Part shown: positions 8,431 to 20,573 of the stretch, in pieces | How the letters are laid out: each line of letters begins with the position of its first letter | Numbering within the stretch: the first letter of the stretch is position 1 | Origin: a virus | Direction: 5' to 3' (one strand) | Virus record (IMG/VR): IMGVR_UViG_3300047316_000273 | Span: 1-23,101 of that record | Length of the DNA stretch: 23,101 nt | Position numbers and translations under genes: made by a program | Notes under the pieces: model-generated | The model's database searches: none | What the model was told of the DNA's origin: nothing | The model's input: the letters and a program-made list of their open reading frames with translations, nothing else

Positions 8431-9006
8431 TTATGCCGCTCGCCTGCGCAACCGTTCGCCAATCGCAGCACGGCGCTTCTGGCACGTCATGGCGTTGTGC
8501 CCTTGCGCGGCACAGAACGAGCAGTGATGCGTCTGGCTCTTTTTCTTCGGCACGTAGATGCTCTTGACCCAGCCGCTTGCCGGGCAAAACGACGCGCGGT
8601 GCCCAACGGCCCCGCACCCTCGGCAGGTGGGTGGACCAAGTTTTACCTCGCCCTTCGCAGCCAGCGCGGCCTGGTAAGCGTTACGCCGCGCCATCGACAT
8701 CAGGGCCCGCGTTTCGGATGAACGCGTCTTGAGCGCGGACGGCGCGATTGGCGTGCGCACTTGCAGCCGCTCCCAGTCCTCGACGGCTTCGGCCTCGGTC
8801 TCACGGCACGGACCTTGGTACACCTGGCCGTGGTCGATGAACCGATAGGCGTAACGCACGATTCGGCCGCTCGAGACCTTTGCGACGTGCTTGCCTGTCT
8901 TCGGTCCGCACTGGTCATCGGGCGGGACAAGCTCTCGAATCAGCCGGCGCGCTTGTCGGCGCGAAATGATCTTGTGCTCTTGCCCGTCGTCGGTAATGAG
9001 TTTCAT
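8431..9006 (-). CDS. Protein with two CCHC zinc knuckles
   Basis: ATG 9006 overlaps the upstream stop (ATGA), and GGAGG lies about 8 bases upstream; the longer frame to 9336 is out-of-frame shadow of other genes. The 191-residue product has an N-terminal region with 'HKIISRRQARRLIREL' and 'GRIVRYAYRFIDHGQVYQG' and a basic middle. It then carries two exact C-x2-C-x4-H-x4-C motifs: C128, C131, H136, C141 and C162, C165, H170, C175. The tail is Arg-rich. Such knuckles bind zinc and single-stranded nucleic acid in retroviral Gag and eukaryotic CNBP-type proteins and are uncommon in bacteria and phages. A single-stranded DNA or RNA binding role is a reasonable inference. It neighbours the replication-initiator-like gene and the putative small terminase. 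Confidence 0.8.
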   Translation of the reverse strand: MKLITDDGQEHKIISRRQARRLIRELVPPDDQCGPKTGKHVAKVSSGRIVRYAYRFIDHGQVYQGPCRETEAEAVEDWERLQVRTPIAPSALKTRSSETRALMSMARRNAYQAALAAKGEVKLGPPTCRGCGAVGHRASFCPASGWVKSIYVPKKKSQTHHCSFCAAQGHNAMTCQKRRAAIGERLRRRAA

Positions 9007-9164
9007 CCTCTCGCCTCCTTCGCTTCCGCCTCTCGTTTCGCCTTGTTCGCCTCGAGTTCGTCCCGCATCGCCTGGCCGAGTAGCGCGCGCAGGGCCATCA
9101 CGTATTCGCTGGCCTTTCGCGCGCGTTCCCGGGCCTGCTGGGCGGTGAGCTTTGGATCGGTCAT
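9003..9164 (-). CDS. Small charged helical protein (53 aa)
   Basis: The frame uses ATG 9164, overlapping the preceding stop (ATGA), and ends overlapping the zinc-knuckle start. The product, MTDPKLTAQQARERARKASE followed by a run of Ala, Glu, Lys and Arg, should be almost wholly alpha-helical and may form a coiled coil. Function is unknown. Chained overlaps on both sides make a real gene likely in spite of its size. Confidence 0.62.
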   Translation of the reverse strand: MTDPKLTAQQARERARKASEYVMALRALLGQAMRDELEANKAKREAEAKEARG

Positions 9165-9640
9165 GGCTTGATCTCGCCAAAGATGACTTCCCACCGCGTG
9201 CGGGCAACGCCGCCAGTGCCAATCGGGTCTCGTATAGCCTTGAGTTCGCCCTGTGTGCAGTCAGCCCAGGACCCGCGCGGCTCGAGCTCCGCGCTTCTGA
9301 CGAATCCGGCGCCCCTGAGCGACGCTCCACTTTCACCAGCCTGCGAATAGGTCACTATGCGGTGGTATCCGAGGGCCTTCGCAGCTGCGCGCGCCGCACC
9401 GTAAAGCATGCCATTCGCCATTGACGCCCCATCCGTGCACGTCCTGTTTATCTCGAGTGTCAGGCCGTCATCGAGCAAACGCGCCACCGGCCTACCGCAA
9501 ATTGCAACGCCGCGGATTCCCGTCTCATCGGCGACGGCAAGAGAGAACTTGTGCCCACGGCACGGCTTGTTGTGCCGATGATGGTGAGCCACAAATTCGT
9601 TAGCTCGCTTCAGCGTCACCGGGATCACGCGTAATGTCAT
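9161..9640 (-). CDS. XF1762-family (GNAT-like) phage protein
   Basis: The 159-residue product matches the pattern I know for XF1762-family proteins of phages and prophages: an N-terminal 'VTLKRANEFVAHHHRHNKP', then 'GHKFSLAVAD', 'VAICGRPVARLLDDG', 'LEINRTCTDG', 'MLYGAARAAAKALGYHRI' and 'SGASLRGAGF'. The order of strands and the 'GASLRGAGF' helix resemble the acyl-CoA N-acyltransferase fold, so it may be an atypical acetyltransferase; the substrate is unknown. ATG 9640 overlaps the upstream stop (ATGA), with GGGAG 8 bases upstream. The C-terminal 'DPIGTGG...RTRWEV' segment is echoed in the protein at 11775-12191. Confidence 0.82.
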   Translation of the reverse strand: MTLRVIPVTLKRANEFVAHHHRHNKPCRGHKFSLAVADETGIRGVAICGRPVARLLDDGLTLEINRTCTDGASMANGMLYGAARAAAKALGYHRIVTYSQAGESGASLRGAGFVRSAELEPRGSWADCTQGELKAIRDPIGTGGVARTRWEVIFGEIKP

Positions 9641-15181: not shown

Positions 15182-15625
15182 CTAGAAGCCGAGCCGTTGA
15201 TCTTCTGAGTTCAGGTCGAACCCGGCAGGATGAGACTTCTTCATCTCGGCCGAGAGCTTCTTCAGGTCGGCGACCGACATGCGGTTTTCGGCCTTCACGC
15301 CGTAGGTTGCCGGGTTGACGAATGCGATCTTTTGCCGGCGGACGCCTTTGTACTCCTCGGTCTTGACCGTTACGCGGCAACGCCCGTGCGGCTCCTGTTC
15401 GTTGAACAGGTCCAGGTCTTCGCCCGAGAAACCAAGCGCGTGGCAGGCGTCCACCGTGCGATCGTACGCTGCGGCAGAAAGCCACCCGGTCCACTCCATG
15501 ACGCTGCCATCCTCGATTTCAAACATCATGACAGCGGCGGGCTTCTGGTCGTTTCCCAGCCTTCCCCACTGAATCCACTCGCTGCCGCTCTTGATCAGCT
15601 TCGCTTTGTAATCGCCGTCGTTCAT
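15182..15625 (-). CDS. DUF669-like phage protein, probable ssDNA-binding
   Basis: ATG 15625 has GAGGAGG about 9 bases upstream; the frame extends upstream to 15754 but overlaps the annealase gene. The 147-residue product has the pattern of small phage proteins placed next to recombination genes: 'KAKLIKSGSEWIQWGRL', 'AVMMFEIEDGSVMEWTGWL', 'AAYDRTVDACHALGFSGEDL', 'RCRVTVKTEEYKGVRRQKI' and 'AFVNPATYG'. This layout resembles DUF669-type proteins, which are thought to bind single-stranded DNA through an OB-like fold. A lone acidic tail, common in SSBs, is only weakly present. It follows the exonuclease/annealase stop by 2 bases, and together they look like a recombination set. Confidence 0.7.
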   Translation of the reverse strand: MNDGDYKAKLIKSGSEWIQWGRLGNDQKPAAVMMFEIEDGSVMEWTGWLSAAAYDRTVDACHALGFSGEDLDLFNEQEPHGRCRVTVKTEEYKGVRRQKIAFVNPATYGVKAENRMSVADLKKLSAEMKKSHPAGFDLNSEDQRLGF

Positions 15626-15627
15626 GT

Positions 15628-17148
15628 TCAGTCCTCCTCGCGGTCGGTCAGCTCCTCGCGGGCGTAGAGCCCGAGAGTCGCCGACGGGTAAACCATGCGC
15701 ACGAGCTGCACCATCGCAGTCTTGCGCAACATCTCCTTGCGTCGCTTGTCCCACTGCCCTCGGTCGTCCCTCTTGCCTGGTCCCGGCGGCGGAGCGGGTT
15801 CGGCAGCTGCAATGCCCGCTGCTACCGCGTCATCGATCGAATACGTGAACGTCTCCGGCTGCGGGTGCTTCGCGTGCTTCGTCTCCCACGTCGCCTCAGT
15901 CATGCTCGACGACACGCGGCGCAGGTAGACGCAATCGGGGTGCTTCTCGGCGAGCACTTGAATCGTGTTCGCGGCCAGCGACGGCTTGCCGCTGATGACA
16001 TGGAACATGTCCAGGCTCGTGAGCACCGGAAAGCCCATCTCCTTGCCGCGGATCATGGTTGCGAGGATGGCCTCGGGATTGCCGAACTTCGTGTAGAGCC
16101 GGCTGTTCATCATCGCCTTGGCCAGCCAGTACGCATCGGCGACGCTGTTTGGCTGCAATGCCGGGTTCGGCGCCGGCACCGCGAGAGCCTTGGTATCGTT
16201 CGACGCCGCCGGCTTTGGCATATCGACCAGTTCGCCGATGGCTACGGTTTGCGGCTCCGACTCGGGCGCAATGTGCGTTGTCTCGGCCTTCACGCCGAAA
16301 ACCTTCTCTGCCGCAATGACGCTACTTGGTACGTCTTCCACGGGTGGCTCCTCCAGTTTGACGATGGGTTTCACGGAACGACCGCTGTACAGGTCGTCGA
16401 AGTTGATCGGGACGTCTCGGCGCAGCTCAATCAGCTTGCGCGTGGTTGCATAGTCGAAGCCCTGGAGCGCCGCCGTCATTGCCGGCGTGAACTGCTTCTC
16501 CTCGAGTGCCTTGACGATGCCGGCCCAGTCGCCATTGGTCTGCAGCATCGCTGTGGCGCGCTTCTCGCCGACGCCCTGACAGCCCTTGATGTTGTCCGAT
16601 GCGTCGCCCACGAGGGCCAGCCAGTCGCCCAGTTGCGACATCTTCACGCCGAACTTGGCTTCGGCTTCGAGCTCGGACCACACCGACCAGTCGTGCGTGC
16701 GCAGCTGCTTCACGCCGGGCCGCAGAAGCTGCATCAGGTCCTTATCGGCGCTGCAGATGGCGACGGGGTGCCCACGGCGGATCGCTTCCTCGCACGCGGT
16801 CGCAATGACGTCGTCGGCCTCGAAGCCCTCCGACTCCCAAAGCAGGTAACCGTCCGCGCGCAGGCGCTCCTTGACCCGGTCAAGCGTGTCGTAGAAGTCG
16901 TTGCCGAGCTTCTCCCGCTGCGCCTTGTACGTCGGGACAAGGTCTTTCCTCCAGCTCTTGCGCGAGTCGAGGCAGATGGCCGTCAGTGCGTTGGGGTCTT
17001 TCTTCGCGCACCGGGTGACGGCGTCGAGCGTGGCGCTGAATGCGACCGATAGCGGCCCGTTTTCGTTAGCTCTCCAAGCGGGATGGAACAGCGACGAAAG
17101 GTCTATCAGCACCACGCGCTGCTTCGTTTCGACGGCTGCGGCGGTCAT
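15628..17148 (-). CDS. Fused FEN-type 5'-3' exonuclease and RecT-like annealing protein
   Basis: A single uninterrupted 506-residue frame starts at ATG 17148, overlapping the upstream stop (ATGA) with AAAGGA 9 bases upstream. Residues 10-255 are a PolA/T5-type flap exonuclease: 'VVLIDLSSLFH' (Asp16), 'LDSRKSWRKDLVPTYKAQR' (60-78), 'FEADDVIATACEEA' (109-122), 'SADKDLMQLL' (133-142), and the helix-hairpin-helix 'GDASDNIKGCQGVGEKRA' (181-198). A Pro/Val/Glu linker spans about 260-335. Residues 336-500 match phage RecT-like annealing proteins: 'AYWLAKAMMNS', 'PEAILATMIRGKEMGFPVL', 'FHVISGKPSLAANTIQVLA', 'ATWETK', 'YSIDDAVAAGI', 'EMLRKTAMVQLVRMVYPS'. Exonuclease resection and strand annealing would be coupled in one chain, normally two proteins. 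All catalytic acids appear intact. Confidence 0.85.
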   Translation of the reverse strand: MTAAAVETKQRVVLIDLSSLFHPAWRANENGPLSVAFSATLDAVTRCAKKDPNALTAICLDSRKSWRKDLVPTYKAQREKLGNDFYDTLDRVKERLRADGYLLWESEGFEADDVIATACEEAIRRGHPVAICSADKDLMQLLRPGVKQLRTHDWSVWSELEAEAKFGVKMSQLGDWLALVGDASDNIKGCQGVGEKRATAMLQTNGDWAGIVKALEEKQFTPAMTAALQGFDYATTRKLIELRRDVPINFDDLYSGRSVKPIVKLEEPPVEDVPSSVIAAEKVFGVKAETTHIAPESEPQTVAIGELVDMPKPAASNDTKALAVPAPNPALQPNSVADAYWLAKAMMNSRLYTKFGNPEAILATMIRGKEMGFPVLTSLDMFHVISGKPSLAANTIQVLAEKHPDCVYLRRVSSSMTEATWETKHAKHPQPETFTYSIDDAVAAGIAAAEPAPPPGPGKRDDRGQWDKRRKEMLRKTAMVQLVRMVYPSATLGLYAREELTDREED

Positions 17149-17534
17149 TTTCCAGTCCTTTGCTTTTCGATCAGTCCAGCGATATCGGGCGGCGTCCATC
17201 CCTCGGGCTTCGCTATTTTGGCGAGTCCCGGGATTCGCACCTTGGCCATGTTGGCGTCCGTAATGGCCTGAAACAGTGGCGCAGCGTCGATGCCGAGCCG
17301 AACGAGACCGCCGAGGGCATAGAACAGGTCGTCCAGGTAGCCGTCGGCCAGGTCCGCAATGTTCCTGCGCCGAATCGCCGTCTCGATTTCGCTGTGCTCG
17401 CTGTCCATCCATTCGAGCCGCAACGTGTGCTCGTCCCAATCAACTTGATCCTCGGTCAGCGGCGTTGACGGTTGCGGGCCGAAGAACTTTTCTTGAAACG
17501 CGCGGACTAGGGCTTGTGCGTCGGAGATGGTCAT
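17145..17534 (-). CDS. MazG-like NTP pyrophosphohydrolase
   Basis: The 129-residue product starts at ATG 17534, which shares its A with the TAA of the preceding gene. It has the all-alpha MazG/HisE-type pattern: 'LVRAFQEKF' near residue 10, 'EWMDSEHSEIETAI' (E41, E46, E49) and 'DLADGYLDDLFYALGGL' (D64, D68), the acidic residues that bind Mg2+ and nucleotide triphosphates. The C-terminal helix with 'DANMAKV' and 'PEGWTPPDI' is also common in phage MazG-like proteins. It would hydrolyse (d)NTPs or an alarmone-type nucleotide to the monophosphate. Co-translation with the exonuclease/annealase suggests a DNA metabolism role. Confidence 0.8.
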   Translation of the reverse strand: MTISDAQALVRAFQEKFFGPQPSTPLTEDQVDWDEHTLRLEWMDSEHSEIETAIRRRNIADLADGYLDDLFYALGGLVRLGIDAAPLFQAITDANMAKVRIPGLAKIAKPEGWTPPDIAGLIEKQRTGK

Positions 17535-20051: not shown

Positions 20052-20573
20052 ATGATCAGCCTGGACGCGATGCCGATACAGCTAGGAAGCCGAGAGGAGT
20101 TCGCCTGGGTGAGCCCGGAGGATTGGCTTCTCGTTAATACGTGCGGCTGGCGACGCCGCATAAGCGGCCTTCGGGTCTACGCCGCCAGCCACCATCGCCG
20201 CTGCGGCCATGGACGCCACGAAGGCGACCTGCATCGTTTTGTCGGTGCTCTTATGGGTATGTCCGGCGCTCGCATCATGGATCATCGCGACGGCAATGGC
20301 CTGAACAATACCAGGCAGAATCTTCGCTCCGCCACCAGGGCGCAAAACAACTCCAATCGAAGACCCAATCTATCAAACCGTGTCGGCCTTAAGGGCGTTA
20401 GGCGCTGTGGCCTTAGGTTTCTGGCTCAGATAACAGTCTCAAAAAGGAATCGCTATCTAGGCCTTTTTGTTACGGCCGAAGCAGCTGCCAGGGTTTACGA
20501 CGCATGGGCCAAAGCCGCGTTCGGCGAGTTCGCATGGATCAACTACCCGGAGGGAATCAATGGACAAGGTTAA
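20052..20573 (+). CDS. HNH endonuclease with AP2 DNA-binding domain
   Basis: ATG 20052 has GGGAAGG upstream and lies just 14 bases from the divergent regulator start. The 173-residue protein shows an N-terminal segment, then an HNH core with 'LHRFVGALMG' (60-69), 'MDHRDGNGLNNTRQNLRSAT' (76-95) and 'AQNNSNR' (97-103). A C-terminal AP2-like domain follows: 'VGLKGVRRCGLRFLAQITVS' (111-130), 'YLGLFVTAEAAARVYDAWA' and 'FGEFAWINYP'. Asp77/His78 and the Asn series supply the active site. HNH-AP2 proteins are typical homing endonucleases of phages. It starts the plus-strand operon. Confidence 0.88.
   Translation: MISLDAMPIQLGSREEFAWVSPEDWLLVNTCGWRRRISGLRVYAASHHRRCGHGRHEGDLHRFVGALMGMSGARIMDHRDGNGLNNTRQNLRSATRAQNNSNRRPNLSNRVGLKGVRRCGLRFLAQITVSKRNRYLGLFVTAEAAARVYDAWAKAAFGEFAWINYPEGINGQG

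What the first reader, a model, noticed from the sequence alone, without database searches (positions are those of the whole stretch)
15628..17148. Single-chain 5'-3' exonuclease plus RecT-like annealase
One unbroken 506-codon frame carries all FEN/PolA-type exonuclease motifs (EADD, SADKD, GDASDN...GVGEK) and then a RecT-like annealing domain joined by a 75-residue linker. In lambda Red and RecET the nuclease and annealase are separate proteins, and the nuclease is YqaJ- or RecE-type, not FEN-type. A fusion would hand resected strands directly to the annealer. A MazG-like enzyme and a DUF669-like ssDNA-binding candidate flank it.
Basis: partly seen in the sequence, partly recalled or inferred. 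Interest (0 to 1): 0.82.

Follow-up and report, generated by a model that had tools for sequence, protein, structure and literature searches.

The report
One-protein phage recombinase: exonuclease plus annealase
A group of uncultured phages has welded two enzymes that other phages make separately, a DNA-end-chewing nuclease and a strand-annealing protein, into one chain; this looks like a natural all-in-one DNA recombination machine that no paper found here describes.

Summary
It is not a sequencing artefact. I found ten further complete non-identical proteins with the same domain order (28-55% identical, plus one 91% pair) and one fragment, in viral contigs and in a phage contig binned to a Myxococcota MAG; one is intact across the ends of a circular 48-kb phage genome. 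Exonuclease halves and annealase halves each form one clade (99/99 and 99/95 support), so one old fusion explains them. FEN metal-ligand carboxylates and the equivalent of Redbeta's near-universal Trp143 are conserved. The fusions stop where the annealing core ends: they lack the 75-288-residue tail that nearly all unfused relatives carry, the part which in Redbeta docks the separate exonuclease and SSB. The nearest unfused relatives sit beside PD-(D/E)XK nucleases; the fusion contigs have none detectable. Best reading: a single-chain 'SynExo' recombinase. Activity is untested. New variant of a known kind.

The parts
15628..17148 (-). Whole fusion gene, 506 aa, FEN-type 5'-3' exonuclease + linker + RecT/Redbeta core
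   Evidence: Open frame; Pfam/PHROG; identical copy elsewhere; family of fusions
16396..17115 (-). 5'-3' exonuclease domain (residues 12-251): PF02739 + PF01367; closest solved folds ExoIX/Xni, plant plastid exonuclease, T5 FEN, Taq
16810..16821 (-). EADD (E110-D113), metal ligands
   Evidence: Conserved in 11 of 11 complete fusions (one has EAED)
16738..16752 (-). SADKD (133-137), metal ligands D135, D137
   Evidence: D135 and D137 invariant in 12 of 12
16591..16608 (-). GDASDN (181-186), metal ligands D182, D185, followed by the helix-hairpin-helix stretch GCQGVGEK
   Evidence: D182 and D185 invariant in 12 of 12
16159..16374 (-). Linker, residues 259-330, predicted disordered, rich in Pro/Ala/Glu/Ser
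   Evidence: pLDDT<50; 65-194 residues in the relatives measured, unconserved in sequence
15637..16158 (-). RecT/Redbeta annealing core, residues 331-504; the protein ends with it
   Evidence: PHROG 4171, PF03837; PDB profile match to Redbeta177 7ujl; BFVD structural matches to RecT models
15751..15753 (-). W466, aligned with Redbeta W143, which PMC9512822 calls almost universally conserved in annealases
   Evidence: (invariant column)
17145..17534 (-). MazG-like nucleotide pyrophosphohydrolase gene directly upstream; its stop overlaps the fusion's start (ATGA)
   Evidence: PF01503 and PHROG 671; coordinates, same junction visible
15182..15625 (-).
   Evidence: No Pfam or PHROG match

Best explanation
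A single-chain phage recombinase that works like lambda Exo + Redbeta or RecE + RecT. The N-terminal FEN-type nuclease chews the 5' strand of double-stranded DNA ends (T5 exonuclease, a FEN homologue, is used this way in Gibson assembly); the flexible linker keeps the RecT core next to the 3' strand as it is exposed; RecT cores oligomerise on it and anneal it to complementary phage DNA. Because the nuclease is tethered, the C-terminal docking domain by which Redbeta-type proteins recruit their exonuclease became unnecessary and was lost, and the usual PD-(D/E)XK partner gene was dropped. SHOWN here by computation: the fused architecture, its conservation, intact catalytic residues, the annealing core, single origin of both halves, absence of the tail, no second detectable Red-type nuclease or RecT. 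INFERRED: enzyme activities, direction of handover, that the tail was lost rather than never present, role in phage replication/recombination.
For: Domains and motifs; model with two well-predicted domains and a disordered linker; nuclease fold equals ExoIX, T5 FEN, Taq (Z 21-29); RecT core matches Redbeta177 at its most conserved motif including W143. Ten other complete fusions plus a fragment. Nine acidic ligands and the Y-K-x-x-R of the arch conserved in all complete members, one E-for-D swap. Both halves monophyletic: RecT tree 99/95, exonuclease tree 99/99 next to PolA exonucleases, so the halves have stayed together while diverging to 28-30% identity. Tail after the core 0-10 residues in 12 fusions against 75-288 in 29 of 31 unfused relatives; that region in Redbeta (178-261) binds lambda Exo and SSB, and residues 1-177 suffice for annealing (PMC9512822; PMC5052646; PMC9772228). 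Nearest unfused relatives L127 and L169 have a nuclease gene right after recT, PD-(D/E)XK/DUF2800 by Pfam in L127 and its homologue by phmmer in L169; Gordonia phages have RecE/Cas4-type. No YqaJ, PDDEXK_1 or PHROG-69 in 12 fusion-carrying virus records, and no RecT outside the fusion. dN/dS about 0.1 in exonuclease and linker and low in RecT between L028 and L108.
Against: No biochemistry. FEN-family phage enzymes also remove RNA primers and flaps, so end resection is not the only possible job. Redbeta without its tail anneals but does not recombine in E. coli (PMC5052646), so the tether must replace more than exonuclease docking. Most virus records are fragments, so absence of other nucleases is not proof. 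Two unfused relatives (L044, L082) also have short tails.
Confidence: 0.7

Rival explanations
1. Anneal first, trim second: RecT pairs single strands at the fork or at a break, and the tethered FEN removes the 5' flaps or RNA primers left at the joint so that ligase can seal it. The fusion is then a replication or joint-maturation enzyme and resection is done by another (host) nuclease.
For: FEN fold and the closest solved relatives are flap/primer-removing enzymes; the exonuclease half is nearest to PolA, whose 5' nuclease does flap and primer removal; in an early Red model joints are resolved by a 5'-3' exonuclease or the flap activity of Pol I (PMC7496540).
Against: The family appears to replace, rather than join, the resecting PD-(D/E)XK partner found beside the nearest unfused relatives.
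Confidence: 0.2
2. Two independent functions on one chain for co-expression only (primer removal plus annealing), with no direct handover; possibly separated by proteolysis or internal translation starts in the linker.
For: Linker unconserved and disordered; several members have start codons with a Shine-Dalgarno-like sequence in the linker.
Against: Internal starts lie at different places and not all members have one with a ribosome-site-like sequence, e.g. L110 has none; absence of the docking tail goes with the fused clade.
Confidence: 0.08
3. Artefact: frameshift, chimeric assembly or chance read-through joining two genes.
For: None found.
Against: Identical copy in another assembly; many independent members with the same domain order, open in all, one across a circular genome's ends after counting the 127-bp terminal repeat once; single-clade trees for both halves.
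Confidence: 0.01

Closest known systems
Lambda Red (lambda Exo + Redbeta) and RecE/RecT 'SynExo' two-component recombinases
   Same: A 5'-3' exonuclease together with a RecT/Redbeta annealase; same annealing core with the W143 equivalent.
   Different: There two genes and two chains held together through the annealase's C-terminal domain; nuclease is YqaJ/RecE (PD-(D/E)XK) type. Here one chain, FEN-type nuclease, no C-terminal docking domain.
PolA/FEN 5' nucleases (Taq and M. smegmatis Pol I, E. coli ExoIX, T5 FEN D15, T4 RNase H)
   Same: Fold, catalytic carboxylates, arch and helix-hairpin-helix.
   Different: Those are alone or fused to a DNA polymerase; none in the sets searched is fused to an annealase (0 of 1212 matching phage records and 0 of 289 matching plasmid records cover 80% of the protein).
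UniProt A0A6J5MUB0, 'PIN_53EXO domain containing protein', uncultured Caudovirales phage (462 aa)
   Same: Full-length structural match to the fusion model, E=7e-40, 30% identity over 509 alignment columns: an existing public entry that appears to have the same layout.
   Different: Named for its nuclease half only; not studied further here.
Unfused RecT of L127 and L169 (Gemmatimonadota MAG) with PD-(D/E)XK/DUF2800 neighbour
   Same: Nearest unfused RecT cores in the tree, with weak support for the exact sister relation.
   Different: Separate recT and nuclease genes, different nuclease fold, long RecT tail.

Membership tests
PolA/FEN 5'-3' exonuclease (PF02739 + PF01367) | Both Pfam domains above curated cut-off | tested here: met
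   93.7 bits (cut-off 34.3) and 59.2 bits (cut-off 40); both found in 11 of 11 family members
PolA/FEN 5'-3' exonuclease (PF02739 + PF01367) | Full set of metal-binding carboxylates and arch Y-K-x-x-R | tested here: met
   D16, D61, E110, D112, D113, D135, D137, D182, D185, Y74, K75, R78; conserved in all complete members, one D112E. Role of the residues from established knowledge of Pol I/T5 FEN
PolA/FEN 5'-3' exonuclease (PF02739 + PF01367) | Fold | tested here: met
   Model residues 9-267 match ExoIX, T5 FEN, Taq at Z 21-29, rmsd 1.9-2.8
PolA/FEN 5'-3' exonuclease (PF02739 + PF01367) | Metal-dependent nuclease activity | not testable with these tools
   Needs purified protein
RecT/Redbeta annealases | Sequence profile match | tested here: met
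   PF03837 30.3 bits (cut-off 24), PHROG 4171 over residues 335-504; PF03837 in 9 of 11 members at E<=0.01
RecT/Redbeta annealases | Near-universal Trp (Redbeta W143) and motif 6 | tested here: met
   W466 invariant in the family and aligned to W143 of 7ujl
RecT/Redbeta annealases | Redbeta/LiRecT fold of the core | tested here: inconclusive
   Predicted beta-hairpin and long helix, BFVD matches annotated RecT (E about 7e-10); PDB re-ranking was filled by the nuclease domain, core alone not modelled
RecT/Redbeta annealases | C-terminal partner-binding region (usual, not required for annealing itself per PMC9512822) | tested here: not met
   0-10 residues after the core in 12 fusions
RecT/Redbeta annealases | ssDNA annealing activity | not testable with these tools
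   Needs purified protein
SynExo two-component recombinase (lambda Red, RecET) | Separate exonuclease and annealase polypeptides | tested here: not met
   Single chain: works like one, is not a standard member
SynExo two-component recombinase (lambda Red, RecET) | PD-(D/E)XK-type nuclease | tested here: not met
   FEN-type instead; PF09588, PF12705, PHROG 69 not detected in 12 records, most of them fragments

The most novel reading that the evidence does not exclude
A natural one-gene dsDNA recombination machine: a single old fusion replaced the PD-(D/E)XK exonuclease by a PolA-like FEN nuclease, made the annealase's docking domain dispensable, and gave a recombinase that does not depend on recruiting a matched partner (perhaps not on host SSB either), resecting, annealing and also trimming flaps on one chain, like an enzyme-level Gibson assembly.
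Probability: 0.4. Interest if true: 0.78.

Novelty: new variant of a known kind. Interest (0 to 1): 0.64.

Why it matters
How lambda Exo and Redbeta work as a complex is still described as open (PMC7496540): trimeric nuclease, oligomeric annealase, unclear loading. A chain in which the two are covalently joined, with the docking tail gone, makes the loading model directly testable: cut the linker, vary it, kill one half. It also offers a one-gene, partner-independent candidate for dsDNA recombineering in bacteria where lambda Red works poorly, and suggests that the nuclease partner of RecT can be exchanged across unrelated folds. A matching UniProt entry exists but only its nuclease half is named.

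Tried and rejected
Single-sequence AlphaFold gave a poor model (mean pLDDT 42); the 11-sequence alignment fixed it. The first C-terminal alignment was too divergent to scan with; one degenerate pattern had too few fixed bases, another mostly gave chance hits plus one RecT. A Methylorubrum plasmid hit covering residues 2-322 looked like a second fusion but is a full-length PolA. Plasmid and phage collections hold no detectable fusion. L029/L114 first looked like an unfused RecT with a long N-terminal extension; joining the contig's ends with the 127-bp repeat counted once gives one 737-codon frame holding both domains. A 'conserved neighbourhood' idea was rejected: neighbours are not shared across the family beyond close pairs, and the window's terminase is not shared with most others. 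The DUF669 reading of the downstream ORF was rejected. The VIA-align list held no RecT chains because the nuclease domain filled it; that is no evidence about the fold. Literature searches found no report of a natural exonuclease-annealase fusion, but only open-licence papers are held, and the 2002 classification of annealing proteins was not available.

Full report
OBSERVATION. The interval 15628-17148 holds one open frame on the minus strand, ATG at 17148 to stop at 15628, 506 aa. Read on the plus strand the interval is not a gene of this kind. Its start overlaps the stop of the upstream gene (ATGA), and the next ORF starts three bases beyond its stop codon, so it sits in a compact operon. 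The record is a 23-kb IMG/VR virus contig with a terminase large subunit, an integrase and a replication-initiation gene.

DOMAINS. Pfam gives 5_3_exonuc_N (1.3e-26), 5_3_exonuc (5.8e-16) and RecT (3.9e-7, above cut-off); PHROG gives an exonuclease family over 7-256 and a RecT-like annealing family over 335-504. With a family alignment AlphaFold predicts two well-ordered parts, 10-255 and about 331-498, and a disordered link 259-330. The first part is the FEN fold: ExoIX, T5 FEN and Taq at Z 21-29. The second part is matched at sequence level by solved Redbeta177 (7ujl, E=1.1e-4 with the family profile), the alignment placing W466 on Redbeta W143, which the authors of that structure call almost universally conserved (PMC9512822). 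BFVD structure matches include RecT-annotated models.

IT IS A FAMILY, NOT AN ACCIDENT. The identical protein occurs in another contig and its first 185 residues in a third. Scans with annealase alignments brought more. Screening all loci for both domains in one frame gave complete fusions L168, L028, L108 (91% identical to L028), L030, L110, L111, L112, L113 and L117, a fragment L116, and L114, whose contig breaks inside the gene. The L114 contig ends share a 127-bp repeat; counting it once yields one 737-codon frame with both domains, so that phage genome is probably circular and the gene intact. Apart from the close pair, pairwise identities run from 28 to 55%. L168 comes from a Myxococcota MAG, but its contig is a phage with terminase, head, tail-sheath and endolysin genes, so the host is known by binning only. 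One genome of 284 in that phylum (the same MAG) had a fusion; the other six RecT hits were unfused.

ONE ORIGIN. In a tree of 43 annealing cores the 12 fusions are one side of a branch, 99/95 support. In a tree of 27 nuclease domains the 11 complete fusions are one side, 99/99, next to PolA-type nucleases. Both halves thus share one history: an old fusion kept through deep divergence. The phages are diverse: neighbours are not conserved beyond close pairs and the window's terminase is not found in most of the others.

CONSTRAINT. Nine carboxylates expected for FEN metal binding, and Y74, K75, R78, are kept in every complete member, with one D-to-E change in L110. Between L028 and L108 dN/dS is about 0.1 in exonuclease and linker and lower in RecT, where synonymous change is near saturation.

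WHAT IS MISSING. After the annealing core the fusions have 0-10 residues; 29 of 31 unfused relatives have 75-288. In Redbeta, residues 1-177 suffice to anneal, and 178-261 serve protein contacts with lambda Exo and SSB (PMC9512822; PMC9772228); mutations there hurt dsDNA recombination, which the authors relate to the nuclease contact (PMC5052646). The nearest unfused cores, L127 and L169, are followed by a nuclease gene (PD-(D/E)XK/DUF2800 by Pfam in L127, its homologue in L169); support for exactly these two as sisters is weak (80/47). In the 12 fusion-carrying virus records no YqaJ, PDDEXK_1 or PHROG-69 nuclease is detectable, and RecT matches occur only in the fusion itself. Fragments limit this negative.

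MECHANISM. The simplest account is a single-chain SynExo: FEN-type resection of 5' strands, immediate capture of the 3' strand by tethered RecT cores, annealing to homologous phage DNA. That FEN-type enzymes can resect ends for annealing is everyday practice with T5 exonuclease (PMC6974442). The main rival is anneal-then-trim at flaps or primers. Both may hold; enzymology decides.

NOVELTY. No paper found in the held library describes such a natural fusion; a survey describes recT next to separate YqaJ or DUF3799 nucleases (PMC8093625). A public UniProt entry, A0A6J5MUB0, matches the model over its full length but is named for the nuclease only. I therefore call it a new variant of a known kind, with the caution that closed-access literature was not searched.

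Noticed in passing
9161-9640 (-): 159-aa protein matches PHROG 1384, Mom-like DNA modification protein, E=7.6e-32: this phage may modify its own DNA.
   Followed up: no
L108 5050-6483 versus L109 5053-6486: Two phages share about 90-98% identical exonuclease and linker DNA, but identity falls from the start of RecT and the downstream flanks are unrelated: mosaic exchange around or inside the fusion gene.
   Followed up: partly
L030 2210-2866 (-) and 2970-3740 (-): A RuvC-like resolvase (PF02075, 2.4e-8) and an N4/N6 DNA methylase lie beside this fusion, on the other strand.
   Followed up: no
L177/L178 (G012 contig ends): 127-bp direct terminal repeat in a 48.4-kb contig: probably a complete circular or circularly permuted phage genome.
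   Followed up: yes
20052-20573 (+): HNH endonuclease (PHROG 99, 2.4e-26) on the opposite strand; a relative lies a little upstream of the fusion in L168.
   Followed up: no
L168 6534-6995 (+): 153-aa ORF that begins at the fusion's stop in L168 reads by eye like an OB-fold/SSB protein, but no Pfam or convincing PHROG match supports it.
   Followed up: partly
8431-9336 (-): Weak zinc-knuckle match (zf-CCHC_6, E=0.003, below cut-off) in the C-terminal part of this ORF.
   Followed up: no
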